Assembly (NCBI GenBank): GCA_028386065.3 | Contig: JAKUCV010004479.1 | Location: 62,001-126,000, forward strand | DNA: 64,000 nucleotides | Direction: 5' to 3' | Origin: Turnera subulata | Lineage: Eukaryota > Streptophyta > Magnoliopsida > Malpighiales > Passifloraceae | Shown: positions 23,673 to 47,500 of the stretch, one piece after another | How positions within the stretch are numbered: position 1 is the stretch's first letter | Layout: each line of letters opens with the position of its first letter | Position numbers and translations under genes: made by a program | The notes under the pieces: model-generated | The model's database searches: none | The model's input: the letters and a program-made list of their open reading frames with translations, nothing else | What the model was told of the DNA's origin: nothing

Positions 23673-23780
23673 AATCTTCCCCTTGACTTGAATTCTCTTC
23701 ATCTACCAGGAAAAAACAACCCTCTACCTTGTCACAGCCCTCTTAAGGGCATTACTGCGTATAGCCTACACCAACCAAGT

Positions 23781-26700: not shown

Positions 26701-26890
26701 ACCTTCAGGAAAATTCTCATTGACTGCCTTCCACAATCCTTACAATACCAGAGAATATCTCATTCTAATCTTCCAAAGACTAAAACTAGATCCTCCATCA
26801 AACTTCTCTATCTCATACTTTGCTGAAGAAGATATTGAATTCAACATCTTCAAAACCTAGATTGGAAACCCAAAAACCAACCCTTGAGCT
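23781..26890 (-). pseudogene. Copia gag-int-RT-RNase H polyprotein, deleted and frameshifted
   Basis: In sense order (descending coordinates): a gag N-terminus near 26720-26850 (YEIEKFDGGSSFSLWKIRM); then an abrupt jump to the GAG-pre-integrase HLRLGHMSDKGL (about 26430) and integrase core (CEHCMFGKKTR; DYIHSDLWGP; MTLIDDYSRMVWVYF; 26130-26394); integrase C-terminal part 25651-25929; RT 24838-25221 with FSPVVKYSYIRVLLAM, DVKTAFLYGELEEQIYM and SLYGLKQS; RT palm YVDDML in 24400-24813; RNase H CDNQSAIHL and HIDVKLHFI in 23781-24068. The gag zinc knuckle and protease are missing. Stops and frame changes separate the blocks, so it cannot make one polyprotein. Confidence 0.92.
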
Positions 26891-26901
26891 TCGCTACCAA
26901 T

Positions 26902-27192
26902 TGTTAAAGGAACGTGGTGATTTTCACACACAATCAAGCACTCAACGAGAAAGAAAAGAAAAAGGACACAAGGAATCAACGAGGTTCAGCCAATGATGCC
27001 TACATCCTCGGACAAGAATAGAGAGAGTTTTTCTAATATGATGAATCATAGTACAATACAGAACCTATTTAAAGTCTCCGTATTAAAACCTGCACTTTCG
27101 GCAACTAAACAGTTGGGCCATAACTAATAACAAGTCCACAAACCCAAACCACAAACTACGTCCATTAGAATTTAAGGCAACAAAAAACAACA
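26902..27192 (-). repeat. 5' LTR of small copia
   Basis: 291-bp copy of the 3' LTR. On the minus strand the PBS lies one base downstream of its CA end. Confidence 0.9.
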
Positions 27193-27197
27193 TCATA

Positions 27198-27900
27198 TAT
27201 ATAAAAATTTGATATATCGTTAATCTTTTTACATAACATATTCGTTAGCTCAGTTATTAATCATGTGGGCATCTTGGCATGATGATACGTTTTCGAGACC
27301 TGAACAGTATTATGATTTGGCCCCCTAAATTTTTTCGTAATCCGGCCCGAGTGCCACAACCCTCACTGTTCACTTTCCGTTTGCAATCCAATTCTAGTCG
27401 TTACTCCATGTTGATGGCTTCAAAAAGTTAATAAATTAGATTGCCACATCTCAAGCCACGAACCGTGGAAATCAAACTTTTAAGTTTCTCTTTGAGAAGG
27501 ATAATCATAGGTTTCTAAATCTTGATTTCCTAAGTTCCAGTAGCAATTGGATTGGGAGACCTCGACTGTGAGTGTACAAAAGTTTATAGAATCGTTGTAC
27601 CAGTAGAAAGACGGTCTACATCTATGGCGGTGATGATGGAGGGCGGGGCCGATGGCAATGTCGGCACAGTTGACGAAGATGGAGCCAATGACTACCCAAA
27701 CCTCGATAACCATGACGTTCTGAATTTAGTTTTTTGAAAATGAGATGGGTGCTGCTTTTTTTCAACACTCCTCTTTTATGGAAGAAGTGATGCATCCCTG
27801 TAAAAAGGCCTTGTTTAAGACCATGACCAAGAATTTGGAAGCTTTATGTGCAAACAGCTCAGGTGGTGAAGATGGTAATGAATGTTTTGAAGTTTTAGAG
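27198..27900. other. Intergenic segment, possibly decayed LINE sequence
   Basis: No domain recognised. A frame at 27552-27737 on the plus strand has Asp/Gly-rich, unremarkable sequence. As the TRIM at 27901-29000 interrupts one continuous target, this sequence may belong to the same old element as the LINE remnant beyond 29000. Confidence 0.35.
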
Positions 27901-29000
27901 TGTTAGGAACTGGGAGTCGCCCGAAAACCAGGGAGACTATAGGCGAGGCCCAAGTGAGATCCATACGCATGACCAGGACACCACATGGTAGCACAAAACC
28001 TCAAGGTATTAAGTACATGGGTCCACTTCACTTATTTGTTACTCACTTGGCCTCTTTCTCTCCGAAGTAGGATATACCAATCATATTTATATTCCAACAA
28101 TCTCCCCCACAAGTGTGAGACTCTTCCATATCGAACATCGGGTCTACTTCCCCTTCAACGGAAACTTTTCGCAACATCACTAAGAGCCCATTCTTCCACC
28201 AAGCCCGTTCCAGGAGCACGCGTCTGCTGATGCTCCAAGAGCTAAAACCTCCTCCAGCACTGAAAGAATTGTGGATGTGGCTCTTGTACACGCCACCTTC
28301 TGGATTAGATCTACACAGCCTGACTTCCCTTACTACACCAGCTGCGTTATGGAAAACCCAGAGACGCTGCTGAATTGGCAGGGCTTTAAACGAAGCTTAA
28401 ATCTTCTTAATGCAACTTAGAGTTACAATTTGACACTCGAGGCTTCTCTTGTAAATAGTTAGCGTATTTTCTTTCCCTATAGTGCCCATGCACACCTGGT
28501 TCCTTCTGTGCTTGACTACTGATTACACAGTTGTATTCCTCATTTCTGTACATATTAAATAAAGCTGATCGTTTGCATAAAAAAAGAAGAAGCTAAACTT
28601 CGCTTAGGCCGAGATAGAAAAGCCACTTAGAAGTATGAGTCTGTCGATACCACTCTTATCCGGAGCCATGCCTTACAACTCCAACCGAAGCTTGGTCCAA
28701 GAGCCCAACCGCTCTTCGTTCCACATAGGGACAGCAACCATGGGAGCATCACCTGTCGCAAACCATTCCGTCCCAACCGTACCATCGGCTCCGCTACCAC
28801 GTGTTAGGAACCGAGAGTCATCCAAAAACCAGGGAGACAATATGCGAGGCCCAAGTGAGATCTATACGCGTGATCAAGACACCATATGGTAACCCAAAGC
28901 CTCAAGGTATTAAGTACATGGGTCCACTTCACTTATATGTTACTCACTTGGCCTCTTTCTCTCCAATGTGGGATACACCAACCACACTTATATTCCAATA
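27901..29000 (-). mobile_element. TRIM (terminal-repeat retrotransposon in miniature)
   Basis: Two 199-bp LTRs (27901-28099 and 28802-29000), reading tgttagg...attccaaca on the plus strand, enclose 702 bp without coding domains. Perfect TSD TAGAG (27896-27900 and 29001-29005). On the minus strand the PBS GTGGTAGCGGAGC (plus 28788-28800) follows the 5' LTR, and a purine tract TGTGGGGGAGAT precedes the 3' LTR. Small open frames in the interior have no recognisable motif. Confidence 0.93.
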
Positions 29001-29795: not shown

Positions 29796-29923
29796 AGTGC
29801 CTACTTCGGATGTGGCTCTATTGTAATATACAAATGATCCTCTTGGATTTTTTTTTTATTTTCTCACATAAGTCCTATTATGATATATATTTGGTCCTCT
29901 TCAAATTTTATTTTTTCACATAA

Positions 29924-30357
29924 TGAAACGTCCCGGCTTGTCGACTGTCACTACAGACCAACACGGGACCTTTCCAACATGCTTTGTCCTCGCACGTTTC
30001 CGGGGAAAACTTTCCATGAGGTCACCCATCCTAGAATTGCTCCAAGTCAAGCACGTTTAACTTTGGAGTTTTTCTAGATTGAGAAACGAAAAGGTAGGTG
30101 CACCTTGTTGATATAGTTAGTACCCATCAAAACGTTTAAGCTACTCTCAATTGTATAGTCCCATACCTGTACTACCTCGAAATCGCTCTAACTGTGCAGC
30201 CCCATCCCTACACAGTCTCAGGATCTCTCCTATTCTGGTGTGGATCGGTTCATTCCCGTGCCCCTCCGTCTAGAAGCCTGCCAGAAGCCGCTCCTTGTCC
30301 ATGCTCATCCCGCCTCCGGTGTAAACTTCCCGCCCTCATAGACCCCGGGGTGTCACA
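29924..30357 (-). repeat. Cassandra-type 3' LTR of chimeric element
   Basis: 434 bp; on the minus strand it starts TGTGACACCCCGGGG and ends CCGGGACGTTTCA. It carries the 5S-rRNA-like block (30007-30080). The purine tract gctggtgggcc precedes it. Confidence 0.9.
30007..30080 (-). promoter_or_regulatory. 5S-rRNA-like pol III promoter block in Cassandra LTR
   Basis: On the minus strand it contains AAGTTAAACGTGCTTG (box A-like) and GGATGGGTGACCTC (box C-like) spaced as in plant 5S rRNA genes. This is the hallmark of Cassandra TRIMs. Confidence 0.9.
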
Positions 30358-30432
30358 GGCCCACCAGCTTTCGCTAGGTTCGTCCCCGAACCATGCACCG
30401 TACTAGAGGACTCTTGGAGCTCCGCTACCAAC
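30358..30432 (-). other. Cassandra internal segment (PBS to purine tract)
   Basis: 75 bp, on the minus strand from GTTGGTAGCGGAGCTCC to GCTGGTGGGCC. It is closely similar to the 75-bp interior of the complete Cassandra at 46507-46581. In a complete Cassandra a 5' LTR should abut its PBS side; here it abuts truncated gypsy LTR sequence instead. Confidence 0.88.
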
Positions 30433-31232
30433 GAACACCAACCACACATGCCCACGACAGCCACCAACCCACGGCAACCGTCCATCAACACCAAAAATAC
30501 AACACGACCGCCACCCAAAACAAAGCCCTCATCAAACACGGTTTCACCAAAAACAACCAAAACGAAAAAGGAAAGGAAATCAGGGGCGACGGAGCTTACC
30601 AGACACGACGGCTCGTCGTGGACCCGACCTCGAGCTCTCCACCGTCTGTTCCCGACCGGTATGTGAGCCTCATCCTCGATGCCGCGTTGGGCCGACTCCC
30701 TAGCTCAAGGGTGCGGCGGCATGAAAGCAGCAAGGTAGGGATGAGGAGAGCCGGACGGAAAACGTGGGAGAGGGAGAGGGCGATGAGAGGGAAAGAGAGA
30801 GAGAAGGAAGAAGGAGACGGGGGAGAAGGTGGGAGCGGCGGCCAAGGAGAAAAGAGAAAAGGAGGAGAAAAGAAGGAGAAAAGAAGAGGGGCTCGGGCTA
30901 GGGTTTGGCCGCCCTAGTGGACGACCTGTCGTCCGCTTAGGCGCGGTCAACCCCCCTGCCTGGTCAACGCGACTTTTCTTTTCTTTTTTATTACTGTTTC
31001 AAAACTACGTAGTTTCGATTGAAACGACGATCGACTTCGTGTTTCACCCCGATGTCAAATCAGTTTTGCACCGAACCCGAACCAAGAGCAATTCCAACTC
31101 CAAATTGACAATTCCTAAGAAATTGATTTATTTTTCCTTAACCAAAAACTCGGAAATCCATCGAGGGTAAAATTGGAATAAAAATTCCGGAAATTTCCGT
31201 AAATTAATTTATAAAAATCCGGGGCGTTACAG
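30433..31232 (-). repeat. Truncated gypsy 3' LTR (first 800 bp)
   Basis: On the minus strand it starts TGTAACGCCCCGG right after the gypsy purine tract and follows the order of the LARD-like LTR at 7671: conserved start, ggttgaccgcg box, ccaaaccctagcc, pyrimidine-rich leader, splice-donor-like ggtaagc. It stops at 30433 without a CA end. By comparison with the LARD LTR, roughly two thirds are missing. Confidence 0.8.
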
Positions 31233-31282
31233 TTCTATCCCACTTAAGAAAATTTCGTCCTAGAAATTATAAGATATGAAAA

Positions 31283-33405
31283 TCAGAACAGATGTGGATA
31301 CTGCTCTCTCATATGGGACTCAACCTCCCAAGTAGCCTCATTCGAAGAATGACGGCTCCACCTAACCCGAACCATCGGAATAACACGACTCCTCAACTGT
31401 TGCTCCTCCCGAGCTAGAATCTCAACCAGCTCCTCCACATAGGTCAAGTCCTCAGAAACCTCCACCTCTGTCGGGGATACAACATGACTAGGATCAGACC
31501 GATAACGCCTCAGCATCGAAACATGGAATACATCATGTATGCACGACAGCTCCTCCGGTAAAGCCAACCTGTAGGCCAGCGGACCGATCCGCTCCATAAT
31601 CTCATAAGGACTAATATAACGAGGGCTCAACTTGTCCTTCCTCCCAAACCGGATAACACCTCTCCAGGGAGCAACACGGAGGAAAACTCTATCACCTACA
31701 CTGTACTCCATCTCCCGACGATGCTTATCGGCAAAACTCTTTAGCTGGTCCTGAGCAGCTCTCATGCACTGCTTAACCACCTCGATCTGATCAACAGTCT
31801 CCTGGACTAGGTCCGGACCAATCACCTGTCTCAGACCTTCCTCAACCCAACAGATCGGACTACGGCATTTCCGTCCACACAAAGCCTCATAAGGCGCCAT
31901 ACCGATACTAGAGTGATACCCGTTGTTATAAGCAAACTCAACCAACGGTAATGTCTCATCCCATGAACCACTGAAATTGAGCACATAAGCTCTAAGCATA
32001 TCCTCCAGTGTCTGTATGGTTCTCTCCGACTGTCCATCGGTCTGCGGATGGAATGCAGTACTAAAATTCAGCTTAGTACCCAAAGCTGACTGTAAGCTCT
32101 TCTAGAAGTGGGAAGTAAACCTCGGATCCCTGTCCGACACAATGGAAAGTGGAACTCTATGTAGACGGACAATACCCGAAACATATAACCTCGCCAGCTT
32201 ATCCATTGTATCCGTCTGCTGAATCGGTAGGAAATGAGCTGACTTGGTCAACCTGTCAACAATGACCCAGATGGAATCATGTCGACCCCGGGTCCTCGGT
32301 AACCCGATCACAAAGTCCATAGTGATATGCTCCCACTTTCACTGCGGGATAGTCAAAGATCTCAACTTGCCGACAGGAGCCTGATGCTTGGCTTTCACCT
32401 GCTGACAAGTCATACAACGAGCCACAAACTCCGAAACATCCTTCTTCATCCCGGGCCACCAATAATGACTCTTCAAGTTCTGGTACATCTTGGTGCTACC
32501 AGGATGCATAGCATATGGCGCATTATGCGCTTCATCCATAATCCATCTCCTCAAATCATCGACATCAGGAACACACAACCGATCACCGGTCATCAAAGCA
32601 CCATCCTCCCGGACATAGAAACTAGAACTCTCTCCACCGAGAGCCTTATCCCGCAATTCTGCTAAATGAGGATCACCATACTACAACTCTATGATCTTAT
32701 CCCGCAAGGTCGACCGAATGCTCAAACTGGCAAGCAACGCCCCAGTAGCATCCACCTCCAACTGCGTATCCAATGACCTCAGCTCTACCAAGGAAGGCAA
32801 AGCATAAGAAACTAGGTCCTCATCCGCAGAAGCCACTCTCTTCCGGCTCAATGCATCTGCAACAGCATTGGCCTTGCCCGGATGGTACACGATAGTACAA
32901 TTATAATCCTTCAGAAGCTCAATCCAGCGTCTCCGCCTCACATTAAGCTCCCTTTGGGTCATGATGTACTTCAAACTCTTGTGATCCGTGAAAATCCGAC
33001 ACTTCTCACCGTACAGATGGTGTCTCCAGATTTTCAAAGCAAACACCACAGCAGCTAACTCCAGATCATGGGTCGGATAGTTCCTCTCGTGAGTTCTCAA
33101 CTGCCTGGATGCATAAGCAATCACCCGGCCCTCCTGCATCAATACACACCCCAAGCCCAGACCAGAAGCATCAGTGAACACCGTGTACTCCACTCCGGGT
33201 CTCGGAACAGTCAAAACTGGCGCCGAAGTCAACCGGCTCTTCAACTCCTCAAAACTCTTCTGACAACGGTCATCCCAAACAAAAGCACAGTCTTTCCTCA
33301 ACAGCTTAGTCATGGGACCCACTATTAAGGAAAAACCTTCAATGAACCTCCGGTAGTAACCAGCAAGTCCAAGAAAGCTCCGTATCTCCGATACACTCTT
33401 CGATG
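31283..33405 (-). pseudogene. Gypsy RT C-term, RNase H, integrase and chromodomain of the chimera
   Basis: Sense is descending. RT thumb/connection: [21 protein letters not shown] from 33390. RNase [18 protein letters not shown], then [21 protein letters not shown]. Integrase zinc finger: PGSTKMYQNLKSHYWWPGMK, then CMTCQQVK (32339-32656). Catalytic core: [12 protein letters not shown], then [12 protein letters not shown] and [14 protein letters not shown]-terminal chromodomain: VRVRWSRHSSNEATWEVE, then MREQYPHLF (ends 31283), typical of Tekay-type chromoviruses. Stops at about 32681 (CAG to TAG), 32339 (TGG to TGA) and 32101 (TGG to TAG) break the frame; all are C-to-T or G-to-A changes. Confidence 0.93.
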
Positions 33406-33410
33406 GCTCC

Positions 33411-35961
33411 TGTGACAACCCGTGTAATTGATGCACTATGTGTTTTACTTGATGAGGAATGGTACTGGGATAGGAGCTGGTGCAATTGGCCAGCAATTGA
33501 CTGAGTAGGCTAGCAATTGGCTTTGGTTGACTAGCATCTGACCCGGATGAATTAATTAACGGATGATTAGTTTTAATCATCGGTTAGTGTGTGCTTAGGA
33601 AGAACTAATCGAGGATTAGTTAAGGCTAAACCTTGGGTGAGATGGCTGAGTCCTGTTGGTTGGGAATATAAGCTGGAGGTGGTAGCTGCTGGTGGCAAGT
33701 AAGGAGGAGGTGGTGAGCTACTTGGGCAAGGTGGCAGAACCAGGAGCAAGAGGCAGCAAGTGGCTGCTCAGTCACCTGCTTCACTCAGCCATATCTGCCC
33801 AAGCAAGCACCTCAAGCCTCATTCTGCCCAGATTCGTGATAGGCACAGAAGAGAGAACATCCTGCCATTCTCCAAGTTCACCCTAAGCAGTAAGCACACA
33901 AGGAAAGGGGGGTAAGTGGTTTGAGTTGGAATTCTTATAGATTTTGGTATCAATTGACTTGTTAAGTGTGCTGGTCACTTGGACAGTGCACCAATTCGAT
34001 TTTGTGATTTTGTTGTTGGGTGTTGGCTTGAGGAAGGATAGTATGTTGGGTTGGGGGTGTTGGTTGGCGAAGTTGGCGCATGATTGATCTGCAGGGGGGG
34101 CAATTAGTGCGCCTGGTGCGCAAAATCGCCCTGCTGGGTGGTCAATTGGTCCTTCTAACCAAATAGCCTAACCTAGCCAGTTGGTGTGTAGGCTGACTTG
34201 TATAAGTTTTTACTTAGTGCTTGTGTTGTTAAGCCATATGTTGATGTTTACTCATGTATGGCAGGTGCTAAAACCTAAGGAGCACCAAGAGAAGGTGAAG
34301 GGCCTAGAGAGGCCTAATTCTGTGTAAGTTTGGTTGTCACATATGTGATGGTTGATGATGCTTGCTTGCTGTTCAATAGCTCCAATATGCTTATTGATGG
34401 CACCAATGGTGCAAATTGATGTAAGATGATATGCCTTGGCTTGTTGACGAGTCCAATATTCGGGCTGTGCATTTCATGCATTACATATGCATCATGACAC
34501 ATGCATAAGATGGTATTGATTGTGAACCTCGCAGTACCCCTGGGCTGCCTGGTTATATGAGATGATGGTGGTGTTGTGCTAGACGCCGTGTCTCATTTTG
34601 CCGAGATTCGTGATAGGCACAGAAGAGAGAACATCCTGCCATTCTCCAAGTTCACCCTAAGCAGTAAGCACACAAGGAAAGGGGGGTAAGTGGTTTGAGT
34701 TGGAATTCTTATAGATTTTGGTATCAATTGACTTGCTAAGTATGCTGGTCACTTGGACAGTGCACCAATTCGATTTTGTGATTTTGTTGTTGGGTGTTGG
34801 CTTGAGGAAGGATAGTATGTTGGGTTGGGGGTGTTGGTTGGCGAAGTTGGTGCATGATTGATCTGCAGGGGGGGCAATTAGTGCGCCTGGTGCGCAAAAT
34901 CGCCCTGCTGGGTGGTCAATTTGTCCTTCTAACCTAATAGCCTAACCTAGCCAGTTGGTGTGTAGGCTGACTTGTATAAGTTTTTACTTAGTGCTTGTGT
35001 TGTTAAGCCATATGTTGATGTTTACTCATGTATGGCAGGTGCTAAAACCCATGGAGCACCAAGAGAAGGTGAAGGGCCTAGAGAGGCCTAAATCTGTGTA
35101 AGTTTGGTTGTCACATATGTGATGGTTGATGATGCTTGCTTGCTGTTTAATAGCTCCAATATGCTTATTGATGGCACCAATGGTGCAAATTGATGTAAGA
35201 TGATATGCCTTGGCTTGTTGACGAGTCCAATATTCGGGCTGTGCATTTCATGCATTACATATGCATCATGACACATGCATAAGATGGTATTGATTGTGAA
35301 CCTCGCAGTACCCCTGGGCTGCCTGGTTATATGAGAAGATGGTGGTGTTGTGCTAGACGCCGTGTCTGGTTTGGTAGCGAGTCACGAGCACTTCCCGTGG
35401 CTGTGGGCTAAGAAGTAACATTGTTGGCAGGGCTACCAGACCATTCAGGTAGGCCTAGTACATCATCACGATAGCTTACCCGTGGGCTGATTACGGTGCA
35501 TTGATGTTTAGCTGTTGGGTGTTATGGCTGCTTGTGTGTGTCATTGCTGTTACTTGTGTGATCACCGGCTTATTGAGTCAGTGGACTCACCCCCCTCTTT
35601 CCACCCCTTTGTTTCAGGGCAAGGAGCTGATTAGCTTGGTGAGGGAAGGCCTGAGAGGCGTGCTTTGTTAGTTGATGGGTACTTGGCCAAAACTACTCGT
35701 AATTTGAGAATAATTGGCTGAAACAACTCACCTAGTGCCCCGCTTAATGTACAGACCTGATGTATAATATAGTGTGGTTGTTGTATGGTTAATTCTGTAC
35801 CTTAACATATGATGCTAAGTGTGGATGTTTTGCTGTGGTTTGGGTTAGGTGCCCGTCGGGCTAACTTCTGCCCAACATTTGACGTAGGCGTTTGGGTGCC
35901 CTGTGACATGCTTAGTAATGTACAAGGCACCTGGCCGGTCACGTTAAGATGGGGCGTGACA
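33411..35961 (+). repeat. 5' LTR of Tekay-like gypsy, with 774-bp internal tandem duplication
   Basis: Starts TGTGACAACCC and ends GGGGCGTGACA. Inside, about 33818-34591 is repeated as about 34592-35365 (period 774 bp) with a small number of substitutions. The corresponding part of the 3' LTR falls partly in the assembly gap, so it is unknown whether both LTRs carry the duplication. A minus-strand 62-codon frame recurs in each copy (34314-34502, 35088-35276, 41463-41651). It resembles no family and is taken as LTR sequence only. Confidence 0.88.
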
Positions 35962-36052
35962 GTTTTGGTAGCGGAGCATGGTTATATGTAATATGAAGGG
36001 GCTTAGGTTAAAAAGCTGCTAAAGGCTAATACCCATCATTAGTAACCGTGGG

Positions 36053-39000
36053 ATGGTGAGAGCTAACATGTTTGTTGGTTCCTTGTACTTGGGTGCAGGT
36101 AAGCCATCAAAGCGAAGGATGGGAAAGGAGGTACTTGCGGGTATTGTTGCTCAAGATGAGCAATCCGTACATGATGCGGAGGATGAGGCAGATGAGACTT
36201 ATGTCCCCGGGGTTGCTAGTGATGAGTTGCCCAACGAAGAAGAATACTCAGATGCATCACAAGAGATGCCATTGGAGGTGTTGAAGGCTGGTTTACATGG
36301 AGTTAATAAAGCAGTTGAAACTATTGCTGTGGCGATGGCTGATGATCGAAAAAGAAGGGAGGAACCGGTACAGCGAGAACATAAAGTAGAATCTGACTTG
36401 GTGACATTTGTGAAACTTGACCCACCAACATTTTCTGGTGCTGAAAATGAAGATCCACAACGATTTTTGGATGAGGTGTGGAAGTGTTGCCAAGTGATGG
36501 AATGCACTGACCATCGAGCTGTTGCTCTTGCAGCTTTTCGGTTGAAGGGAGATGAGGCCAATGATTGGTATGAATCTAAAAGGAGGGAGAGAGTGCCTAA
36601 TGTTGCACCGTGGACTTGGACTGAATTTTGTGACATGTTTCTTGAACGATTTCTGCCCGAAAGTGTTAGGGATCAAAAGGCAGCCGAGTTTGAACTGCTG
36701 AAACAAGGGGAGATGTCAGTGAGTGAATATAACACAAAGTTCACAAATCTGTCTAAGTATGCCTTGCATTTGATTCCAGATCAGCGGAGGAAGATCAAAA
36801 GGTTCATTGGAGGACTGAAGGGTTATATTCATAACTCTTTAGTGGCTATACCATTTAGCTCTTATGCTGAAGCAGTAGACAAAGCTCGGGCAATTGAGAT
36901 AAAGACCCAAGCAGAAAGAGTTGAGGCAAGTGCCAAGAGAACAAGGCATGACAACACTCAAAGCCAACCAAGTTTTTCTGCTGGTGGTGGCCAATTCCGA
37001 GGACGTGGGAAAACAGGATTGTGGGTAAACATACCAAGGGCCCGTTTCAGAGGCAATTCTAGTTATGGTGCCTCAAGCTTTGGTGGGAGCTCGACGAGAC
37101 CTATAATCAGTCAGAACAGGGGTGCACAAAGTGTGGAGATGAAGTCTAACTCTGTATGTTTTATGTGTGGTCAGTTTGGTCATATGTCTCGGGAATGCCC
37201 CGTAGGGCAGAACATATGTTATTCGTGTAGGCAGCCAGGGCATAGAGCTCGGGAGTGTTCTGTTGGGCAACCATCAATGGCGTCCAGTGTGGCTTCTCCA
37301 CCACCTAGGCCACCGCGGGCTGATAGCCAATCCTCTGTCCGCGGCAGAGGAGGTACTACCCGTGGAGCCTTTGGTAGGGGTAGCAGCTACCAACCGGGGC
37401 AGGGACAGGCACGAGTATTTTGCTTGACCCAGGAGGATGCTGGAGCCTCCAACACAGTTGTGACAGGTATCTTGAAAGTTAAATTGTGTCCTGCACTATG
37501 TTTAATTGACACGGGATGTACTCACTCCTTTGTAAATATTCATTTTGCAAAGTACTTTAAGGATGTACCTAGTGACTTGGGTAGCCCATTGGCCGTGTAT
37601 ACCCCACTTGATGAGCGGGTTTATGTGGACAAGGTATATCGGGAGTCCGATATCTGTGTGATGGAACACCATTTGCCAGCTGATTTGCTGTTGTTACCTA
37701 TGGCTGATTTTGATGTAATTTTGGGTATGGATTGGCTTTCTCGGTATGGCGCACGGGTAGATTGTGCAAATAAGTTGGTGAAGTTTCAACCCTCAGGGGA
37801 GGCAGAATTCATCTTCCAAGGAAAGTTTGTCTCTTCACAACCCCGAATAATTTCTGCAGTGAAGGCAATACGGGTGGCACGGCGTACAAATTGTTTATAT
37901 TTGGCGTCGGTGCAAAGTGTGGGTGAGTCGAAAATTTCCATTGATCAAGTACCAATTGTTAAAGAATTTGTTGATGTTTTTCCTGATGACTTGCCGGGGT
38001 TACCACCAGAACGAGAAATTGAGTTTGGCATTGAGCTTGAGCCGGGGGCAGAACCCGTATCAATTACACCTTATCGAATGGCTCCTACGGAATTGCGGGA
38101 ATTGAAAACTCAGTTGCAGGATTTATTGGATAAGAGGTTTATCAGACCTAGCGTGTCCCCGTGGGGAGCTCCGGTTCTATTTGTCAAGAAGAAAGATGGC
38201 TCAATGAGAATGTGTGTGGATTATCGGCAATTAAACAAGCTAACCATACGAAACAAGTACCCGCTGCCTCGTATTGATGATTTGTTTGATCAGTTGCAAG
38301 GAGCAAGATACTTTTCGAAAATTGACTTGAGATCAGGTTATCATCAGTTACGAATTAAGGAAGAGGATGTGAGGACAACAGCCTTTAGGACAAGGTATGG
38401 GCACTATGAATTTTTAGTAATGCCGTTTGGACTTACTAATGCACCTGCGGCTTTTATGGACTTAATGAACCGAGTGTTCAAGCAGTACCTTGACAAATTT
38501 GTGATTGTGTTCATTGATGATGTGCTGATTTATTCAAAGACGAAAGAGGGGCATGCAGAGCATTTAAGAATTGTATTGCAAATCCTACGGAAAGAAAAAC
38601 TATATGCTAAGTTTTCAAAATGTGAATTCTGGTTGGAAAAAGTTTCATTCTTGGGTCATGTCATATCTGCTGAGGGTATTGAGGTAGATCCGCAGAAAGT
38701 GGAGGCAATTGTTAAGTGGCCGAGGCCGACCAATGTGACGGAGGTACGAAGTTTCCTTGGGCTGGCGGGATATTACCGTCGGTTTGTTGAAGGCTTCTCC
38801 TCTATTGCTGCACCATTGTGTGGACTGACTCAAAAGAAGAAACCATTTATTTGGTCTGAAGTGTGTGAGGCTAGTTTCCAGGAGCTGAAACATAGGCTAA
38901 CCTCAGCACCAATACTTGCTTTACCCAAAGAAGATGGTGTGTACACCGTGTACTGTGATGCGTCAAGAGTCGGTTTGGGCTGTGTCTTGATGCAGGATGG

Positions 39001-40340
39001 CAAGGTGATTGCCTATGCCTCTCGGAAATTGAAAAAGAATGAAGAGAATTATCCAGTGCATGACCTGGAGATGGCAGCAGTAGTCTTTGCATTGAAAATC
39101 TGGAGACATTACCTGTACGGAGAGCCTTGTGAAATTTACACGGATCATAAAAGCTTGAAATACATAATGGAACAGCGGGATTTGAATTTGAGGCAGCGTA
39201 GATGGGTGGAGTTACTTAAGGATTATGACTGTACCATTAAATACCATCCAGGAAAAGCCAATGTTGTGGCTGATGCCCTTAGTCGGAAATCTGTTGGTAG
39301 CTTGGCACATCTTAGTGTGGCTAGGAAACCCGCAGTTAGGGCTTGGCATGATTTGCTGGACCAAGGCTTGCGTTGTGCCGTGGCCGCGTCTGGGGCATTG
39401 TTAGCTCACTATCAGGTCCGTCTCACATTGAATGATGAAATTGCAAGAGCTCAAGATAATGATGCTGAAACTAAATCGTGGAAAGAAAAGGTGAAACAAG
39501 GGGAACAAGCTGGGTTTGTGATTACTGATGATGGCATATTAAGGTTCGGTACAAGAATGTATGTTCCTGATGTCGGGGATCTCCATAGCAAACTTCTAAA
39601 AGAAGCACATCAAACCCGATACACCTTACATCCAGGATCCACCAAAATGTATCACGACTTGAAAACACATTATTGGTGGAATAACATGAAGCGGGATGTG
39701 GCAGAATATGTTGCTAAATGTTTGGTATGCCAACAAGTGAAGGGTGAGCATCAAAAACCACCGGGGTTGCTTCAGCCCTTATCAGTTCCAGAATGGAAGT
39801 GGGAAAGAATCACCATGGATTTTGTTAGTGGATTACCACGAACGGCAGGTGGGTTTGATTCTATTTGGGTGATTGTTAATCGATTAACCAAGTCTGCCCA
39901 TTTTCTTCCGGTAAAGACTACTTATAATTTTGCGAAGCTGGCACAGGTGTATGTTGATGAAATTGTGAGGCTACATGGTGTACCCGTTTCGATAGTATCT
40001 GATCGAGGCCCTCAATTTACATCAAGATTTTGGCGAAGCTTCCAAAATGCTACAGGGACTCAACTTGATTTGAGTACTGCATTCCACCCTCAAACGGATG
40101 GGCAAAGTGAACGGGTGATACAAATCCTGGAAGACATGTTGCGAGCTTGTGTGCTAAGTTACGGGGATGGTTGGAATAAATACTTGTCGTTGATTGAATT
40201 TGCCTACAACAATAGTTACCAATCAAGCATTGGTATGGCCCCATATGAACTACTGTATGGGCGCAGGTGTAGAACTCCAATATGTTGGAATGAAGTGGGG
40301 GTCAGAAAATTACTAGGGCCTGAAATTGTTGAGGAAACGG
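36053..40340 (+). CDS. Gypsy gag-pol polyprotein, open to assembly gap
   Basis: 1,429 codons without a stop before the gap. Gag with retrotransposon-gag domain (about residues 130-230: [16 protein letters not shown] to KYALHLIP). Two CCHC zinc knuckles (C369-C382 and C389-C402; [28 protein letters not shown]). Aspartic protease [10 protein letters not shown] (Asp about 486). RT with [23 protein letters not shown] and catalytic FIDD at 820-823. RNase [15 protein letters not shown] (about 967). Integrase HHCC ([11 protein letters not shown], then CLVCQQVK) and DD35E core (ITMDF about D1256, [16 protein letters not shown] about E1353). The chromodomain expected at the C-terminus would lie in the gap. 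ATG 36053 is the first start; 36120 (MGKEVLAG) is an alternative. An uninterrupted frame suggests recent activity. Confidence 0.95.
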
Positions 40341-41291
40341 NNNNNNNNNNNNNNNNNNNNNNNNNNNNNNNNNNNNNNNNNNNNNNNNNNNNNNNNNNNN
40401 NNNNNNNNNNNNNNNNNNNNNNNNNNNNNNNNNNNNNNNNNNNNNNNNNNNNNNNNNNNNNNNNNNNNNNNNNNNNNNNNNNNNNNNNNNNNNNNNNNNN
40501 NNNNNNNNNNNNNNNNNNNNNNNNNNNNNNNNNNNNNNNNNNNNNNNNNNNNNNNNNNNNNNNNNNNNNNNNNNNNNNNNNNNNNNNNNNNNNNNNNNNN
40601 NNNNNNNNNNNNNNNNNNNNNNNNNNNNNNNNNNNNNNNNNNNNNNNNNNNNNNNNNNNNNNNNNNNNNNNNNNNNNNNNNNNNNNNNNNNNNNNNNNNN
40701 NNNNNNNNNNNNNNNNNNNNNNNNNNNNNNNNNNNNNNNNNNNNNNNNNNNNNNNNNNNNNNNNNNNNNNNNNNNNNNNNNNNNNNNNNNNNNNNNNNNN
40801 NNNNNNNNNNNNNNNNNNNNNNNNNNNNNNNNNNNNNNNNNNNNNNNNNNNNNNNNNNNNNNNNNNNNNNNNNNNNNNNNNNNNNNNNNNNNNNNNNNNN
40901 NNNNNNNNNNNNNNNNNNNNNNNNNNNNNNNNNNNNNNNNNNNNNNNNNNNNNNNNNNNNNNNNNNNNNNNNNNNNNNNNNNNNNNNNNNNNNNNNNNNN
41001 NNNNNNNNNNNNNNNNNNNNNNNNNNNNNNNNNNNNNNNNNNNNNNNNNNNNNNNNNNNNNNNNNNNNNNNNNNNNNNNNNNNNNNNNNNNNNNNNNNNN
41101 NNNNNNNNNNNNNNNNNNNNNNNNNNNNNNNNNNNNNNNNNNNNNNNNNNNNNNNNNNNNNNNNNNNNNNNNNNNNNNNNNNNNNNNNNNNNNNNNNNNN
41201 NNNNNNNNNNNNNNNNNNNNNNNNNNNNNNNNNNNNNNNNNNNNNNNNNNNNNNNNNNNNNNNNNNNNNNNNNNNNNNNNNNNNNNNNNNN
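40341..41291. other. Assembly gap (951 N)
   Basis: A run of undetermined bases replacing the integrase C-terminus, chromodomain, purine tract and the start of the 3' LTR. Frames computed through the N block are artefacts. Confidence 1.
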
Positions 41292-42336
41292 CAATTGGTC
41301 CTTCTAACCTAATAGCCTAACCTAGCCAGTTGGTGTGTAGGCTGACTTGTATAAGTTTTTACTTAGTGCTTGTGTTGTTAAGCCATATGTTGATGTTTAC
41401 TCATGTATGGCAGGTGCTAAAACCCAAGGAGCACCAAGAGAAGGTGAAGGGCCTAGAGAGGCCTAAATCTGTGTAAGTTTGGTTGTCACACATGTGATGG
41501 TTGATGATGCTTGCTTGCTGTTTAATAGCTCCAATATGCTTATTGATGGCACCAATGGTGCAAATTGATGTAAGATGATATGCCTTGGCTTGTTGACGAG
41601 TCCAATATTCGGGCTGTGCATTTCATGCATTACATATGCATCATGACACATGCATAAGATGGTATTGATTGTGAACCTCGCCGTGCCCCTGGGCTGCCTG
41701 GTTATATGAGATGATGGTGGTGTTGTGCTAGGCGCCGTGTCTGGTTTGGTAGCGAGTCACGAGCACTTCCCGTGGCTGTGGGCTAAGGAGTAACATTGTT
41801 GGCAGGGCTACCAGACCATTCAGGTAGGCCTAGTACATCATCACGATAGCTTACCCATGGGCTGATCACGGTGCATTGATGTTTAGCTGTTGGATGTTAT
41901 GGCTGCTTGTGTGTGTCGTTGCTGTTACTTGTGTGATCACCGGCTTATTGAGTCAGTGGACTCACCCCCCTCTTTCCACCCCTTTGTTTCAGGGCAAGGA
42001 GCTGATTAGCTTGGTGAGGGAAGGCCTGAGAGGCGTGCTTTGTTAGTTGATGGGTACTTGGCCAAAACTACTCGTAATTTGAGAATAATTGGCTGAAACA
42101 ACTCACCTAGTGCCCCGCTTAATGTACAGGCCTGATGTATAATATAGTGTGGTTGTTGTATGGTTAATTCTGTACCTTAACATATGATGCTAAGTGTGGA
42201 TGTTTTGCTGTGGTTTGGGTTAGGTGCCCGTCGGGCTAACTTCTGCCCAACATTTGACGTAGGCCTTTGGGTGCCCTGTGACATGCTTAGTAATGTACAA
42301 GGCACCTGGCCGGTCACGTTAAGACGGGGTGTGACA
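41292..42336 (+). repeat. 3' LTR (distal part) of Tekay-like gypsy
   Basis: Matches 34918-35961 of the 5' LTR with scattered substitutions (for example GCCGTGCCCC versus GCAGTACCCC) and ends GGGTGTGACA at the TSD. Confidence 0.93.
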
Positions 42337-42341
42337 GCTCC

Positions 42342-43183
42342 CAATCCATGACTGCCTTAATCTTGGTCGGGTCCACCTTAATGCCTTCACCGGACACAAT
42401 ATGCCCAAGGAACGCGACCTCATCCAACCAAAACTCACACTTGCTGAGCATGGCATAGAGCTGCTCTTCTCTCAACCTCTGCAAAACCTGTCTCAAGTGG
42501 TTCTCATGTTCGGCCTTACTACTCGAGTAGACCAGAATATCATCAATGAACACTACCACAAACCGATCAAGAAATTCATGGAAGACCTGCTGCATCATAC
42601 ACATGAACACTGCCGGTGCATTTGTCAGCCCAAACGGAACAACTACAAACTCATAATGACCATACCGAGTGCGCAATGCAGTCTTCGGTATGTCTTGTTC
42701 TGCAATCCGAACCTGATGGTAGCCAGATCGCAAGTCAATCTTCGAGAATACAGATGCACCCTGTAACTGGTCGAACAAGTCATCGATCCTGGGCAAAGGA
42801 TACTTGTTCTTCACAGTCACCTTGTTCAACTGCCTATAGTCCACACACATCCGCATACTGCCATCCTTCTTCTTCACAAACAAGACCGGGGCACCCCATG
42901 GTGAGATGCTCGGTCTAATAAAACCCTTATCCAACAACTCCTCCAGTTGTTTCTTCAACTCCTGAAGTTCTGCCGGAGCCATTCTGTAGGGCGGTATAGA
43001 AATAGGTGCAACTCCCGGTACCAAGTCAACTGTATACCCCACCTCCCGCTCCGGAGGCAACCCAGGTAAATCATCAGAAAATACATCGGGAAACTCCCGA
43101 ACAATTGGGATGTCCTCCACTCCAGGTACTGGTACCGAAGAGTCGACCACATGAGCTAGAAATGCACTTCCCTGGCCCGACAA
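42342..43183 (-). pseudogene. Gypsy protease-RT junction and RT N-terminal half of the chimera
   Basis: Minus strand: [38 protein letters not shown] linker, then [28 protein letters not shown], catalytic [28 protein letters not shown], ending at AVMDWE where the Tekay-like element entered. RT catalytic residues are intact. The reading frame differs from that of the upstream gag-protease block, and about 50 residues normally between the protease end (REVHF) and FLAHVVD are missing. This points to a frame-changing deletion at about 43158-43180. Confidence 0.9.
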
Positions 43184-44790
43184 TCAACTACTGTCCGATG
43201 TCTGGACAACCAATCCATGCCTAAAATAACATCAAACTCTCCCAAGTCCATGACCGCAAGATCAGAAGCAAAACTCTCACTATCATACTCTATCGATACA
43301 TCTCTACAAACTCGATCAACAACTACTATATCACCGGTGGGTAAACGGACTCTCAGGGGTCTACTAAGATTATCATCCTCTATGCTGTGAGTGGTCATGA
43401 ATGCACGTGATACAAAAGAATGTGTTGAGCCTGGATCAACTAAAGCATGTGCATACTGACCAAAAACCATAAATGTACCTGCTATAACCTCTGGAGCATC
43501 AGCAGCCTCCTCCCGGGTGATGGCATAAACCCTAGGAGCTGCAGCAGACTGAGTCGCACCCCCGCGGTTCGGAGCTCCAGAACCCCCACGACCTCGACCC
43601 TGCTGTCCGCCACCCCTATTCTGACCAGAAGAAACAGCACCACTAGCCACATAACTCTGTACTATATACTGGGAACCACTGCCACCACTATCCTTAATCC
43701 ACTTGTAACAAGATGACTTCTGGTGTCCTGACTTATTGCAATACCAGCATGTACCCGAGAATCGTGCCGAGAAACCCCGTCCCTGAGAGCCAGACTGATA
43801 GGACCGTCCTCCCGAGGATCTGTCTGGTCCACCTTGATAACTCTGCCCTCGGGACTTCTTCGAACCTAGGTAAGAAGAACCATGTCCACCAGAATAATCT
43901 GCACCTCCGGCATCAGAATACTGCCTCTTCTGTCCTGAAGCAGATGACTGCTTCCTCTGCTCGGCTGTCCGAGCCTCCTTCCCGATCAACTGAACTCTCT
44001 CAGCATCAAAAGCAGCTTCACAAACTGCCTCCCAAGTCTTGTGCCCTCTACCAGCCACAGCTAACGCCAACTCTGTACGTAAGCCGTTAACAAACCGCCT
44101 ACACTTAGTCACCTCATCGGGCATAAACTCCCTAGCATAAGAGAGAAGGATGCTGAACCAGATCTTGAAAGCTGATACAGTCTCATCTAGTCCCTGCTTC
44201 ACCTCAAGAAAATGCTTCTTCTGCTCCTCAAAAAAACCAACAGTAAGAAACTCCTTGTAGAATTTCTCCTTGAAATCCTCCCAGGGCATCTCCACAGGCT
44301 TCGGTAGGTTGGCCACAAGTTCCTGCCACCATGTCAAACCATATCCCGTGAACTTGTGTGCCACAAATCGAGCCCTCTGCTCAGGTGCACAGGTGAACTT
44401 CTCCAGAACATTCTCCACCTGGCGGAACCAATCATCAAACTCCTTGGCTTTGCCCTCTTCACCAGAGAATTCCTTCACTGCTGACTTATCCATATGCTTG
44501 AAACCACTCTCCATACCACCTGCCGCAGCAGGTGCTACCGGTTGGGCACCCTGCTGCTGCTGCTGAAACTATTGGAACTGCTGCCACTGCAAAAAGGCCT
44601 GATACTGCTGGAACGCTGGGTCCACAACATGTGGTATAGGTGGCACAACATTCTGTCGTCCTCCACCTACAGCATTATTCCCTGCTGCATCATTGTTCCC
44701 TTGACCAACGAGAACCTGCATCACCGACACATTATCGGAGACATGAGTAGCGGCGTCACCCTCAACATTGTGCTGCCCCTGGTGATCCAT
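43156..44790 (-). pseudogene. Gypsy gag-protease of the chimera
   Basis: Start MDHQGQHNVEGDA at 44790. An in-frame TAG at about 44569 (QQFQ*FQQQQ, ancestral CAG) separates the first 73 codons from the rest. Gag domain: EFSGEEGKAKEFDDWFRQVENVLEKF to FVNGLRTELALAV (about 43990-44480). Single zinc knuckle CWYCNKSGHQKSSC. Protease ALVDPGSTHSFVS has DPG in place of the more usual D(T/S)G, and ends in [21 protein letters not shown] and a stop at 43156. It follows the PBS by about 130 bp. Confidence 0.92.
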
Positions 44791-44934
44791 ATCAACGCCT
44801 ATATGAATGCAAATGAGTCAAAACACTTTTAAAGTCCTAAATCCGGAAACAGGCTTAAACACAGAAATCACTTTGAAAACAAAGTTTAAAACACTTTTAA
44901 AACCAAGGATCTGAAGCCTGCTCCGCTACCAAGC

Positions 44935-45373
44935 TGAAATGTCCCGGATTGTCGACTGTCACTACAGACCAACACAGGACCTTTCCAACATGCTTTGTCC
45001 TCACTCGCACGTTTCCGGGGAAAATTTCCCAGGAGGTCACCCATTCTAGAATTGCTCCAAGTCAAGCACGTTTAACTTTGGAATTTTTCTAGAATGAGCA
45101 CCAAAAAAGGTAGGTGCACCTTGTTGATATAGTTAGTACCCATCAAACCGTTTAAGCTACTCTCAATTGTACAGTCCCATACCTGTACAACTTCGAAATC
45201 GCTCTAACTGTGCAGCCCCATCCCTACACAGTCTCAGAATCTCTCCTATTCTGGTGTGGATCGGTTCATTCCCGTGCCCCTCCGTCTAGAAGCCTGCCAG
45301 AAGCCGCTCCTTGTCCATGCTCATCCCGGCACCGGCGTACACTTCCCGACCTCATAGACCCCGGGGTGTCACA
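44935..45373 (-). repeat. Cassandra-type 5' LTR of chimeric element
   Basis: 439 bp; minus strand TGTGACACCCCGGGG to CCGGGACATTTCA, immediately followed by gypsy PBS TTGGTAGCGGAGCAGG (not the Cassandra interior). The 5S-like block lies at about 45021-45095. It is nearly identical to the LTR at 29924-30357. Confidence 0.9.
45021..45095 (-). promoter_or_regulatory. 5S-rRNA-like pol III promoter block in Cassandra LTR
   Basis: Minus strand AAGTTAAACGTGCTTG, then GAATGGGTGACCTCCTGGGAA, the box A- and box C-like parts of a 5S rRNA gene. Here it sits upstream of a gypsy gag-pol. Confidence 0.9.
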
Positions 45374-45378
45374 CATAA

Positions 45379-45619: not shown

Positions 45620-46334
45620 TGGTGGCCCAATACCACATAGAGAGTGAGTGAGGGAGATCATACTTGGCTACCAAATAACCTCAGGTTTAAACTTTTGTGC
45701 CTTGTGATTTTGGTCTAGCCGTGTGGGTTATTGTAAGCCAGTTTAGCTACTACTTCGGGTGTAACAAAATGGTAGTGGAGCTATTCTCATTTTATTTTTG
45801 AGTGGATTTGGGCGATATATCTTAGAGGTTGATACTGAGATGATGATCGGTACAGCCGGGGGATCAGGGGGCCGAAACGGATTTAGGCCTCTTTCACAAG
45901 GATGTGGGGCCAAAAGGAGAGGACAATGTGATGACCCATTCTCACTTTGGAAGTGAATGAGATAGATCTTGGATATATATGCACTATGTAACGTCCCGGC
46001 TTGTCGATTGTCACTACAGACCGACACGGGACCTTTTCAACATGCTTTGTCCTCACTCGATGAGCATGGACAAGGAGCGGCTTCTGGCAGGCTTCTCGAC
46101 GGAGGGGTACGTAAATGAACCGAATCCACATTGGAATAAGAGAGATCCTGAGACTATGTAGGGATGGGGCTGCACAGTTGGGGCAGTTTCGTAATTATAC
46201 AGGTATGGGACTGTATAATTAAGAATAGCTCAAAATGAAGCGATTTTGAGGTTGTGAAGATATAGGGCTGTACAATTGAGAATAGCTTAAACCGTTTGAT
46301 GGGTACTAACTATATCAACAAGGTGCACCTACCT

Positions 46335-46420
46335 TTTCGATGCTCATTCCATAAGAACTCCAAAGTTAAGCGTGCTTGACTTGGAGCAATTCTGGGATGG
46401 GTGACCTCCTGGAAAATTTT
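46335..46420 (+). promoter_or_regulatory. 5S-rRNA-like block, Cassandra left LTR
   Basis: AGAACTCCAAAGTTAAGCGT, then GCTTG and GGGATGGGTGACCTCCTGG in 5S order. This copy is closest to functional 5S promoter sequence in the window. Confidence 0.9.
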
Positions 46421-46904
46421 CCCTAAAAATATACGAGTGGGGACAAAGCATGTTGGAAAGGTCTCGTGTTGTTCTGTAGTGACAGTCGACAAGCCGGGAC
46501 GTTACAGTTAGTAGCGGAGCTCCAGGACATCTCTAGAACAGTGCAGGGTTTAGAGACGAACCTAGCGGAAGCTGGTGGGCCTGTGACACTCGGGGTCGAT
46601 GAGGACAGGAAGTGTTCGCCGGTGCTGGGATAAGAATGGACAAGGAGCGGCTTCTGGCAGGCTTCTCGACGGAGGGGCACATGAATGAACCAAATCCACA
46701 CCTAAATAGGAGAGATCTTGAGACTGTGTAGGGATGCGGCTGCATAGTTGGGGCGATTTCATAATTATACGGATATGGGACTGTTTAATTAAGAATAGCT
46801 CAAAATGAAGTGATTTCGAGGTTGTGCAGGTATGGGACTGTACAATTGAGAATAGCTTAAAAGGTTTAGTGGGTACTAACTACATCAACAAGGTGCACCT
46901 GCCT

Positions 46905-46991
46905 TTTCGATGCTCATTCCATAAGAACTCCAAAGTTAAGGGTGCTTGACTTGGAGCAATTCTGGGATGGGGTGACCTCTTGGGAAGTTTT
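46905..46991 (+). promoter_or_regulatory. 5S-rRNA-like block, Cassandra right LTR
   Basis: Same arrangement as in the left LTR, with AAGTTAAGGGTGCTTG and an extra G in GGGATGGGGTGACC. Confidence 0.88.
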
Positions 46992-47500
46992 CTCCGGAAA
47001 TATGCGAGCGAGGACAAAGCATATTGGAAAGGTCTCGTGTTGGTTTGTAGTGATAATCGACAAGCCGGGACGTTACAAAGTAGTTGGCTACCAAATAACC
47101 TCTAGGTTAAGATTTTGAGCCGCTTAGTTTTAGTCCAGCCGTGGAGGTTCATTTGGCAAGTCTACTACTTGAGACGTGACAAAATGGTAGCCGAGCCAAT
47201 CTCACTCCACTTTCGGATGGGCATGGTCTATATGGCCCGTATAATGAGGGTTGATACCCAAACGATGATTGATACGCATGTGGATTGGTTGGTGATATGA
47301 ATTTGAGCCCTACTCGCAAGGATGCACGATCTAAAAGAGGAGAAAATGTAATGACCCACGTCCCACATCGTGAGGAATCTTAAGCATATATATACCAAGT
47401 AGCTAGGTACCATACAAACTCAAACTTAAGCCTTTAGGCCATGTCATTTCAATCCAATTGTGGAGTTTCTCTTGGTGGTGGTAGATGATCATTCAACATG

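What the first reader, a model, noticed from the sequence alone, without database searches (positions are those of the whole stretch)
29924..45373. Chimeric retrotransposon: Cassandra (5S-bearing TRIM) LTRs have captured a gypsy gag-pol and integrated as one unit
Seen: Cassandra LTRs at both ends, a perfect CATAA target duplication outside them, and between them a Ty3-gypsy PBS-gag-pol with only 800 bp of its 3' LTR and no 5' LTR, then a complete Cassandra interior. Known: Cassandra is non-autonomous and must borrow proteins from another element. Inference: this is one retrotransposition product of a heterologous RNA pair, giving Cassandra an internal coding body and making Cassandra plus a Tekay-like gypsy a candidate parasite-helper pair. 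I am not aware of a described Cassandra-gypsy chimera of this form, but could not search.
Basis: partly seen in the sequence, partly recalled or inferred. Interest (0 to 1): 0.9.

Follow-up and report, generated by a model that had tools for sequence, protein, structure and literature searches.

The report
Cassandra wrapped around a gypsy retrotransposon
A plant DNA stretch holds a hybrid jumping element in which a tiny element with no genes of its own (Cassandra, marked by a piece of 5S ribosomal RNA gene) encloses the protein-coding body of a larger element; it was likely copied together in one event from two RNAs in the same particle, which would point to the still unknown helper that moves Cassandra.

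Summary
On the minus strand, 45373-29924 is one unit bounded by sister LTRs of 439 and 434 bp that carry a sense-oriented 5S promoter core, with TG...CA ends and a CATAA duplication outside. Inside are a PBS, a broken gypsy gag-PR-RT-RH-INT body, the gypsy PPT, the first 799 bp of a gypsy LTR, and then a complete 75-bp Cassandra interior with a second PBS. A younger gypsy (33411-42336, TSD GCTCC), not mentioned in the finding, is nested in the body. The LTR piece is colinear with the first third of a related 3-kb LTR up to the junction, so it is truncated. Both joints fall at primer-binding sites, where strand transfers occur. One template-switching reverse transcription of co-packaged Cassandra and gypsy RNAs, then one integration, explains this best. 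The kind is known (Sabot & Schulman complexes; Gao's coding elements with TRIM LTRs); the Cassandra-Ty3/gypsy pairing was not seen in the capped listings of eight full-text searches. Limits: one copy, no host genome reachable, so siblings, an empty site and a stepwise origin are untested. The coding body is broken: a fossil, not an autonomous Cassandra.

The parts
45374..45378 (.). target site duplication CATAA, 5' side of the element
44935..45373 (-). 5' LTR, Cassandra type, 439 bp, TGTGACACCCCGG...CATTTCA
45026..45085 (-). 5S rRNA-derived promoter core in 5' LTR, sense orientation, 60 bp at 78%
44920..44932 (-). first primer-binding site TTGGTAGCGGAGC; the next 15 bases match the leader of gypsy-like G3 at 12, while the Cassandra interior matches the 13-bp PBS only
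43156..44514 (-). G1 gypsy gag and protease open stretch (a stop at 44571 in the same frame lies just upstream)
42337..43183 (-). G1 reverse transcriptase, in another frame than gag-PR (frameshift near 43158-43186); the ORF scanned (42314-43183) ends just inside G4
33411..42336 (+). G4, a younger gypsy nested in G1 (TSD GCTCC at 33406-33410 and 42337-42341; K80 0.017 over 1049 bp of its LTR pair; N gap 40341-41291)
32681..33410 (-). G1 RNase H region (the ORF scanned, 32681-33580, begins inside G4)
31286..32680 (-). G1 integrase (zinc-binding, core below cutoff, SH3, weak chromodomain); in-frame stops at 32683, 32341 and 32104
31232..31245 (-). G1 polypurine tract AAGTGGGATAGAAC (by position before LTR start and likeness to G3)
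30433..31231 (-). first 799 bp of the G1 3' LTR (TGTAACGCCCCGG...), truncated; colinear with positions 1-1013 of the ~3-kb G3 LTR
30358..30432 (-). complete 75-bp Cassandra interior with second PBS (30419-30431) and predicted Cassandra PPT; gapless 75-bp alignment with the interior of C2
29924..30357 (-). 3' LTR, Cassandra type, 434 bp
30009..30070 (-). 5S rRNA-derived promoter core in 3' LTR, sense orientation, 62 bp at 79%
29919..29923 (.). target site duplication CATAA, 3' side of the element
46059..47077 (+). comparison element C2: Cassandra with 5'-truncated 5' LTR, 75-bp interior (46507-46581) and 496-bp 3' LTR

Best explanation
The minus-strand unit 45373-29924 is a chimeric LTR retrotransposon with 5S-bearing Cassandra LTRs at both ends and a Ty3/gypsy gag-pol plus truncated gypsy LTR inside, likely made by one template-switching reverse transcription of co-packaged Cassandra and gypsy RNAs and likely inserted in one integration. 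Proposed steps (inferred): minus-strand DNA starts on Cassandra RNA, makes its strong-stop, transfers to the Cassandra 3' end, copies U3, PPT and the whole interior to the PBS and runs out of template (its R-U5 was degraded). It then anneals by a few bases (GTTGGT-like) to the transcribed part of the gypsy 3' LTR and copies that LTR piece, pol and gag back to the gypsy PBS. Plus-strand DNA started at the Cassandra PPT makes a Cassandra LTR plus PBS and transfers to the gypsy PBS, which has the same 13 bases. The product is LTR-C / PBS-gag-pol-partial LTR-G / PBS-interior-C / LTR-C, with ends that an integrase accepting Cassandra can insert. Shown: the anatomy, sister LTRs, TSD, truncation and junction positions. 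Inferred: co-packaging, the order of transfers, and that the gypsy (a chromovirus-type element) is a helper of Cassandra. Later events, shown by nesting and lesions: G4 inserted into the body and the coding frames decayed.
For: Sister LTRs (K80 0.0525 against 0.116-0.135 to C2; 14:1:1 sites; shared ~57-bp gap) and a CATAA TSD meet the two criteria that Sabot & Schulman use for a single template-switch insertion. 5' joint: full LTR-C to its CA, then a PBS after which Cassandra likeness ends at once (13 bp) while G3 leader likeness goes on (24 of 28 bp, 12 of 15 beyond the PBS) and gypsy gag follows. 3' joint: the LTR-G piece aligns with G3 LTR 880-1013 to within 3 bp of the joint, and the Cassandra part starts at the first base of its interior (75 bp against 75, no gap). 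GTTGGT occurs twice in the last 36 bp of LTR-G and again at the start of the PBS; G3 continues with TTTGGT, so the switch could use short homology. Decay fits one age: 3 nonsense changes by alignment plus a probable fourth, 4.4-5.3 expected from the LTR-C divergence, 1.5-1.8 from that of nested G4. The first 12 bases of the LTR match the 4 gypsy or gypsy-like elements at 9-11 of 12 and the 3 short-LTR elements E1-E3 at 4 of 12.
Against: Single copy; no sibling, empty site or host genome was seen (genome search did not complete). The PBS (8 junctions in 7 elements, same or a base or two off) does not single out the gypsy as helper and would also allow deletion between PBS copies. A TSD also fits an ordinary Cassandra later modified in place. 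The comparison Cassandra C2 is itself old (own LTR pair K80 0.121), so the distance contrast says less than it seems; the grouping rests on 16 sites and the gap. The C1 pair has ts:tv 11:11, unlike 40:9 in C2; unexplained. The leader evidence is 15 bases; the G4 leader (score 28) and E1 (27) hardly beat Cassandra (26) there. GTTGGT is common in the window (64 against 37 expected). The stop count has wide error, and the stop at 44571 was not covered by an alignment. Cassandra RNA is described as a Pol III product (passage), so sharing a particle with a presumed Pol II gypsy RNA is not established.
Confidence: 0.7

Rival explanations
1. Stepwise origin: an ordinary Cassandra inserted here (CATAA); a gypsy then inserted at or near the start of its interior; later deletions removed the gypsy 5' LTR (between the two identical PBS copies) and about 2 kb of its 3' LTR up to the Cassandra interior.
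For: The 13-bp PBS repeat would favour a deletion of exactly the gypsy 5' LTR; nested insertions occur here (G4); outer TSD and sister LTRs are equally expected.
Against: Needs a gypsy insertion at the LTR/interior boundary, loss of both gypsy TSD copies, and two deletions whose ends fall on the first base of the Cassandra interior and on the PBS; the interior is complete. Lesion load suggests the gypsy body is about as old as the LTR pair, with wide error.
Confidence: 0.14
2. A multicopy composite family: the Cassandra-LTR/gypsy-body element is an established, once mobile lineage, of which this is one old copy; Cassandra TRIMs could even arise from it by deletion between the duplicated PBS, as Gao et al. 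proposed for OsajRetroS10 from OsajLTRA10.
For: Same topology as OsajLTRA10, with a PBS-containing sequence duplicated at both breakpoints (section read). C1 LTRs form their own subtype, lacking ~57 bp found in C2.
Against: The internal gypsy PPT and truncated gypsy LTR show that the body came from an ordinary gypsy. T-runs of 4 or more (41 on the sense strand of the gypsy part) argue weakly against Pol III re-transcription; the Cassandra parts have 5 such runs themselves. No second copy in the window; 0 matches for a word at each joint in viral contigs, a collection where none is expected.
Confidence: 0.1
3. DNA-level recombination of extrachromosomal cDNAs or of genomic copies (gene conversion, end joining) joined the two elements before integration.
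For: End joining at short homology could give the 3' joint.
Against: Does not by itself give two sister LTRs, one TSD and a joint at the PBS on both sides; genomic recombination between two insertions would leave no matching TSD (argument of Sabot & Schulman).
Confidence: 0.04
4. Assembly artefact: the joints do not exist in the genome.
For: An N gap of 951 bases lies inside nested G4.
Against: Both chimera joints lie in gap-free sequence; G4 is flanked by its own TSD GCTCC and G1 runs on colinearly across it relative to G2; the outer TSD matches.
Confidence: 0.02

Closest known systems
Template-switch complex LTR retrotransposons (Angela, Squiq, Opie complexes; Sabot & Schulman 2007, PMC1950507; abstract and results section read)
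   Same: One TSD, highly similar outer LTRs, an internal LTR, two internal regions, explained by a jump between two co-packaged RNAs.
   Different: Their examples are complexes within one family with an internal LTR; here a 5S-bearing TRIM is joined to a Ty3/gypsy element with an unrelated LTR, and the internal LTR is truncated.
OsajLTRA10 / OsajRetroS10 and the other TRIM-related coding elements, 11 in all (Gao et al. 2016, PMC4717578; one section and passages read)
   Same: TRIM LTRs around a coding body; in OsajLTRA10 a PBS-containing 25-bp sequence is duplicated at both breakpoints.
   Different: Their flowering-plant cases are Ty1/copia, none is called Cassandra in the text read, and no foreign LTR piece is described there; supplement not read.
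Cassandra TRIMs (Maiwald et al. 2024, PMC10853983, first parts of results and discussion, one section and passages read; Kalendar et al. 2020, PMC7215508, abstract and passages)
   Same: 5S promoter core in the LTR, PBS, PPT, short interior, LTR lengths up to about 400 bp.
   Different: The 81 Cassandras of that dataset show no coding remains and are 563-968 bp long; this unit holds gag-pol.
LTR swapping between autonomous and nonautonomous partners in soybean (Du et al. 2010; title seen in a reference list; content recalled)
   Same: Exchange of LTRs between partner elements.
   Different: There, as recalled, related partners; here LTRs that share only their ends, one with a Pol III type promoter.

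Membership tests
Cassandra (outer LTRs and 75-bp interior) | 5S-derived core of about 70 bp with A-box, IE and C-box in the LTR | tested here: met
   60-73 bp at 78-80% in 4 of 4 LTRs, sense orientation; C-box AGGATGGGTG kept in the 3' LTR, one change in the 5' LTR. Against: Rfam 5S only 17.4 bits on the 5' LTR.
Cassandra (outer LTRs and 75-bp interior) | core within 25-75% of the LTR | tested here: inconclusive
   At positions 289-348 of 439, 66-79%, slightly past the published range.
Cassandra (outer LTRs and 75-bp interior) | methionine PBS and PPT | tested here: inconclusive
   PBS TGGTAGCGGAGC differs at 2 of 12 from the plant initiator-Met PBS (recalled); no tRNA gene found in the window to compare. 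PPT by position only.
Cassandra (whole unit) | non-autonomous, no coding remains | tested here: not met
   gag, PR, RT, RH, INT matches. The unit is a chimera, not a Cassandra.
Ty3/gypsy chromovirus (inner body) | gag-PR-RT-RH-INT order with chromodomain after INT | tested here: inconclusive
   Order met; integrase core 21.6 bits (cutoff 32.6, broken stretch) and Chromo 19.2 bits, E 0.0011 (cutoff 25.1). Assignment to Tekay not tested.
Template-switch complex (Sabot & Schulman) | TSD and highly similar outer LTRs | tested here: met
   CATAA; 94.9% identity.
Template-switch complex (Sabot & Schulman) | internal LTR and two complete core sequences | tested here: inconclusive
   Internal LTR present but truncated at 799 bp; gypsy body and complete Cassandra interior present.
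Template-switch complex (Sabot & Schulman) | made from two co-packaged RNAs | not testable with these tools
   Would need particle RNA or cDNA from a living system.

The most novel reading that the evidence does not exclude
This is a molecular fossil of Cassandra's RNA inside a gypsy particle: a Ty3/gypsy chromovirus is the helper that reverse-transcribes and integrates Cassandra in this plant lineage, recognising its LTR ends (TGTRACRCCCCGG...CATTTCA) and PBS rather than a shared LTR, so a Pol III transcribed TRIM rides on a Pol II element.
Probability: 0.45. Interest if true: 0.75.

Novelty: new variant of a known kind. Interest (0 to 1): 0.6.

Why it matters
Which autonomous element moves Cassandra is an open question in the papers read: Kojima 2024 (PMC10886601) writes that there is 'no indication' of the family responsible (passage), and Kalendar 2020 calls the partners unknown (passage). 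A chimera made in one reverse transcription would record that a Cassandra RNA and a particular gypsy RNA were in reach of the same reverse transcriptase, so it names a candidate helper and makes the question testable by searching plant genomes for joints of this form. It would also extend template-switch complexes from same-family pairs to a pair with unrelated LTRs and different polymerases.

Tried and rejected
Rejected: (1) a plain autonomous element with 5S-bearing LTRs: the internal gypsy PPT and LTR start and the second PBS speak against it. (2) The 799-bp piece as a complete short LTR: it ends ...GTTC, not CA, and aligns with only the first third of the G3 LTR. (3) Cassandra inserted into a gypsy LTR: the flanks hold no clear rest of such an LTR; of 4 weak matches the best is G2 LTR to the right flank, 87 bp at 65.5%, E 0.004. 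(4) PBS sharing as proof of partnership: the variant is common to the seven elements inspected. (5) T-runs as proof that Pol III cannot transcribe the unit: the Cassandra parts carry 5 runs of 4 or more themselves, so this is weak.

Led nowhere: Rfam on the window and on 18 kb; a bacterial-type promoter scan (not used); viral-contig scans for the 5S core, a shorter core (34) and a word at each joint (65, 66), 0 matches each; gag in viral contigs (1 stretch, not confirmed) and genome contigs (5 of 10 stretches confirmed, 25-30% identity, likely contaminants, not used); protein search with gag (278 hits, 120 listed; best-scoring named hits Sesamum and other plants, top hit 32% identity over 99%), host not identified. 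The genome search was asked 10 times with the same request and never answered; its genomes are prokaryote, so the plant host may not be held at all.

In one search the G2 LTR start was first taken 2 bases late (5 of 12) and then in register (10 of 12); the 3'-end counts there for G3, G4 and E3 are out of register and are not used, and the E3 LTR boundary is uncertain. From by eye, the G3 and C1 5' LTRs both end CATTTCA; G4 (GTGACA) and C2 (GTTACA) do not. G3 is called gypsy-like by its LTR, PPT and PBS only; no coding frame of it was identified.
Full report
What is there. Read on the minus strand, the unit runs from 45373 to 29924: 5' LTR (44935-45373), PBS (44920-44932) and leader, gag-PR (to 43156), RT (to 42337), then after a nested insertion RH and INT (33410 to 31286), a polypurine tract, the first 799 bp of a gypsy LTR (31231-30433), a 75-bp Cassandra interior with a second PBS (30432-30358) and the 3' LTR (30357-29924), with CATAA on both sides. 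Without the nested element it is about 6.5 kb.

The LTRs are Cassandra type. In the rest of the window the same search lists 5 further matches, all at E 2.9. Many of the mismatches lie between the intermediate element and the C-box, a region that Maiwald et al. describe as variable in Cassandra. Rfam alone would not have called it (17.4 bits on the 5' LTR, cutoff 38). A C1-type element without the insert would be 948 bp (439+75+434), inside the published 563-968 bp; C2, if its lost 5' LTR end matched its 496-bp 3' LTR, would be about 1.07 kb, outside it.

One insertion. The two LTRs are sisters relative to C2 (94.9% identity, K80 0.0525, against 87.8-89.4% and 0.116-0.135), with 14 of 16 informative sites and a shared ~57-bp gap. 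C2's own two LTRs differ by 0.121, so C2 is an old comparison; no other complete Cassandra was at hand, and the fragment C3 (74 bp) is 89.2% and 92.9% alike to the two LTRs. The TSD has a chance probability of about 0.002 by composition and sits exactly at TG...CA ends; two bases of apparent extension are the LTR's own CA.

The joints. At the 5' joint the LTR is complete. After the 13-bp PBS, likeness to the Cassandra interior ends, while likeness to the leader of the gypsy-like G3 goes on for 15 bases (12 alike); G4 and E1 leaders score little better than Cassandra there. Gypsy gag follows. At the 3' joint the gypsy LTR is colinear with the G3 LTR (1-478 with 1-499 at 62%; 669-796 with 880-1013 at 67%) and stops there although the G3 LTR is about 3 kb long; the Cassandra interior starts at its first base (75 bp against 75 in C2, no gap). 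The last 36 bp before the joint carry GTTGGT twice, like the start of the PBS, and G3 continues with TTTGGT, so the alignment with G3 runs 6 bases past the joint. GTTGGT is common in the window (64 matches, 37 expected), so this is only suggestive.

Mechanism (inferred). Primer-binding sites are where minus-strand DNA runs out of template and where plus-strand DNA transfers. A jump from the Cassandra PBS to the transcribed part of a gypsy 3' LTR, followed by a normal second transfer to the gypsy PBS, yields exactly this order of parts. Sabot & Schulman (results section) use TSDs and similar outer LTRs to recognise such products. The stepwise rival needs an insertion at the boundary, loss of its TSD and two deletions ending at the same boundaries. 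I cannot exclude it without siblings or an empty site.

Age and fate. The nested gypsy G4 (TSD GCTCC; K80 0.017 over 1049 bp of LTR) is younger than the LTR pair (0.0525), as nesting demands. Aligned to the G4 frame, the body has 3 in-frame stops (32683, 32341, 32104) and a change of frame near 43158-43186; a stop at 44571, in the gag frame but outside the alignment, is a probable fourth. For 4572 nt of coding sequence (gag start taken by eye) 4.4-5.3 stops are expected from the LTR divergence and 1.5-1.8 from that of G4, so body and Cassandra LTRs look about equally old, within wide error. With a recalled rate of 1.3e-8 per site and year the insertion would be about 2 million years old. The sense strand of the gypsy part has 41 T-runs of 4 or more, three of them within 45 bases after the PBS; the Cassandra parts have 5. 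A Pol III transcript would probably not cross the body, so this looks like a dead-end product, not a new autonomous Cassandra; this step is a guess.

Helper question. The first 12 bases of the Cassandra LTR match the four gypsy or gypsy-like elements of the window at 9, 10, 10 and 11 of 12 and the short-LTR elements E1-E3 at 4 of 12 each; this speaks for a gypsy integrase. The PBS does not discriminate: 8 junctions in 7 elements are alike within a base or two. Papers read in passages say that Cassandra's helper is unknown.

Literature. Eight full-text searches showed 14 of 14, 25 of 258, 20 of 1,761, 20 of 115, 15 of 90, 15 of 40, 10 of 38 and 12 of 26 papers; no title or abstract start in these listings reports a Cassandra-gypsy chimera. 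Nine of these papers were opened in part, as outline, named sections or passages. The pear and beet Cassandra papers that treat recombination (titles seen) are not held and were not read, so an earlier report cannot be ruled out.

Noticed in passing
33411-42336 (+): Nested gypsy G4 with TSD GCTCC, an open gag-pol frame up to an N gap (40341-41291) and a 774-bp tandem duplication inside its 5' LTR.
   Followed up: partly
44920-44932, 30419-30431, 46507-46520, 10669-10681, 35965-35977, 22441-22453, 26888-26900, 28788-28800: Elements of at least five kinds use nearly the same PBS, TGGTAGCG[G/A]AGC (C2 with one further change), instead of the usual plant TGGTATCAGAGC (recalled), as if the host primer tRNA ended in GCTCCGCTACCA. 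No host tRNA was available.
   Followed up: partly
45983-46060 and 46059-46506: A Cassandra LTR end in inverted orientation abuts the truncated 5' LTR of C2, a rearrangement of two Cassandra copies.
   Followed up: no
7301-22772 (-), 23387-27192 (-), 27900-28998 (-): Three further elements (E1-E3) with short LTRs (about 200-320 bp) and nearly the same PBS. The first encloses G3 (about 7671-15260), an element with 3-kb gypsy-like LTRs. Only 5 ORFs of 150 aa or more lie in 1-29900; one was scanned.
   Followed up: partly
377-874 and 49961-50464 (+): Two frames with a squalene-hopene cyclase N-terminal match, in copies 83% alike at DNA level, so triterpene synthase-like gene pieces lie on both sides of this repeat block.
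   Followed up: partly
51924-63249 (+): Gypsy G2 with LTRs of about 2.4 kb, 94.5% alike; no PBS was recognised after the 5' LTR match, so it looks rearranged.
   Followed up: no
L001, L002: Two bacterial scaffolds (Geminicoccus, Solirubrobacter) encode a gypsy-like gag at 25% identity, likely eukaryotic contamination.
   Followed up: no
29924-30357 / 44935-45373: The LTR pair differs by 11 transitions and 11 transversions, against 40:9 in the C2 pair; unexplained, small numbers.
   Followed up: no
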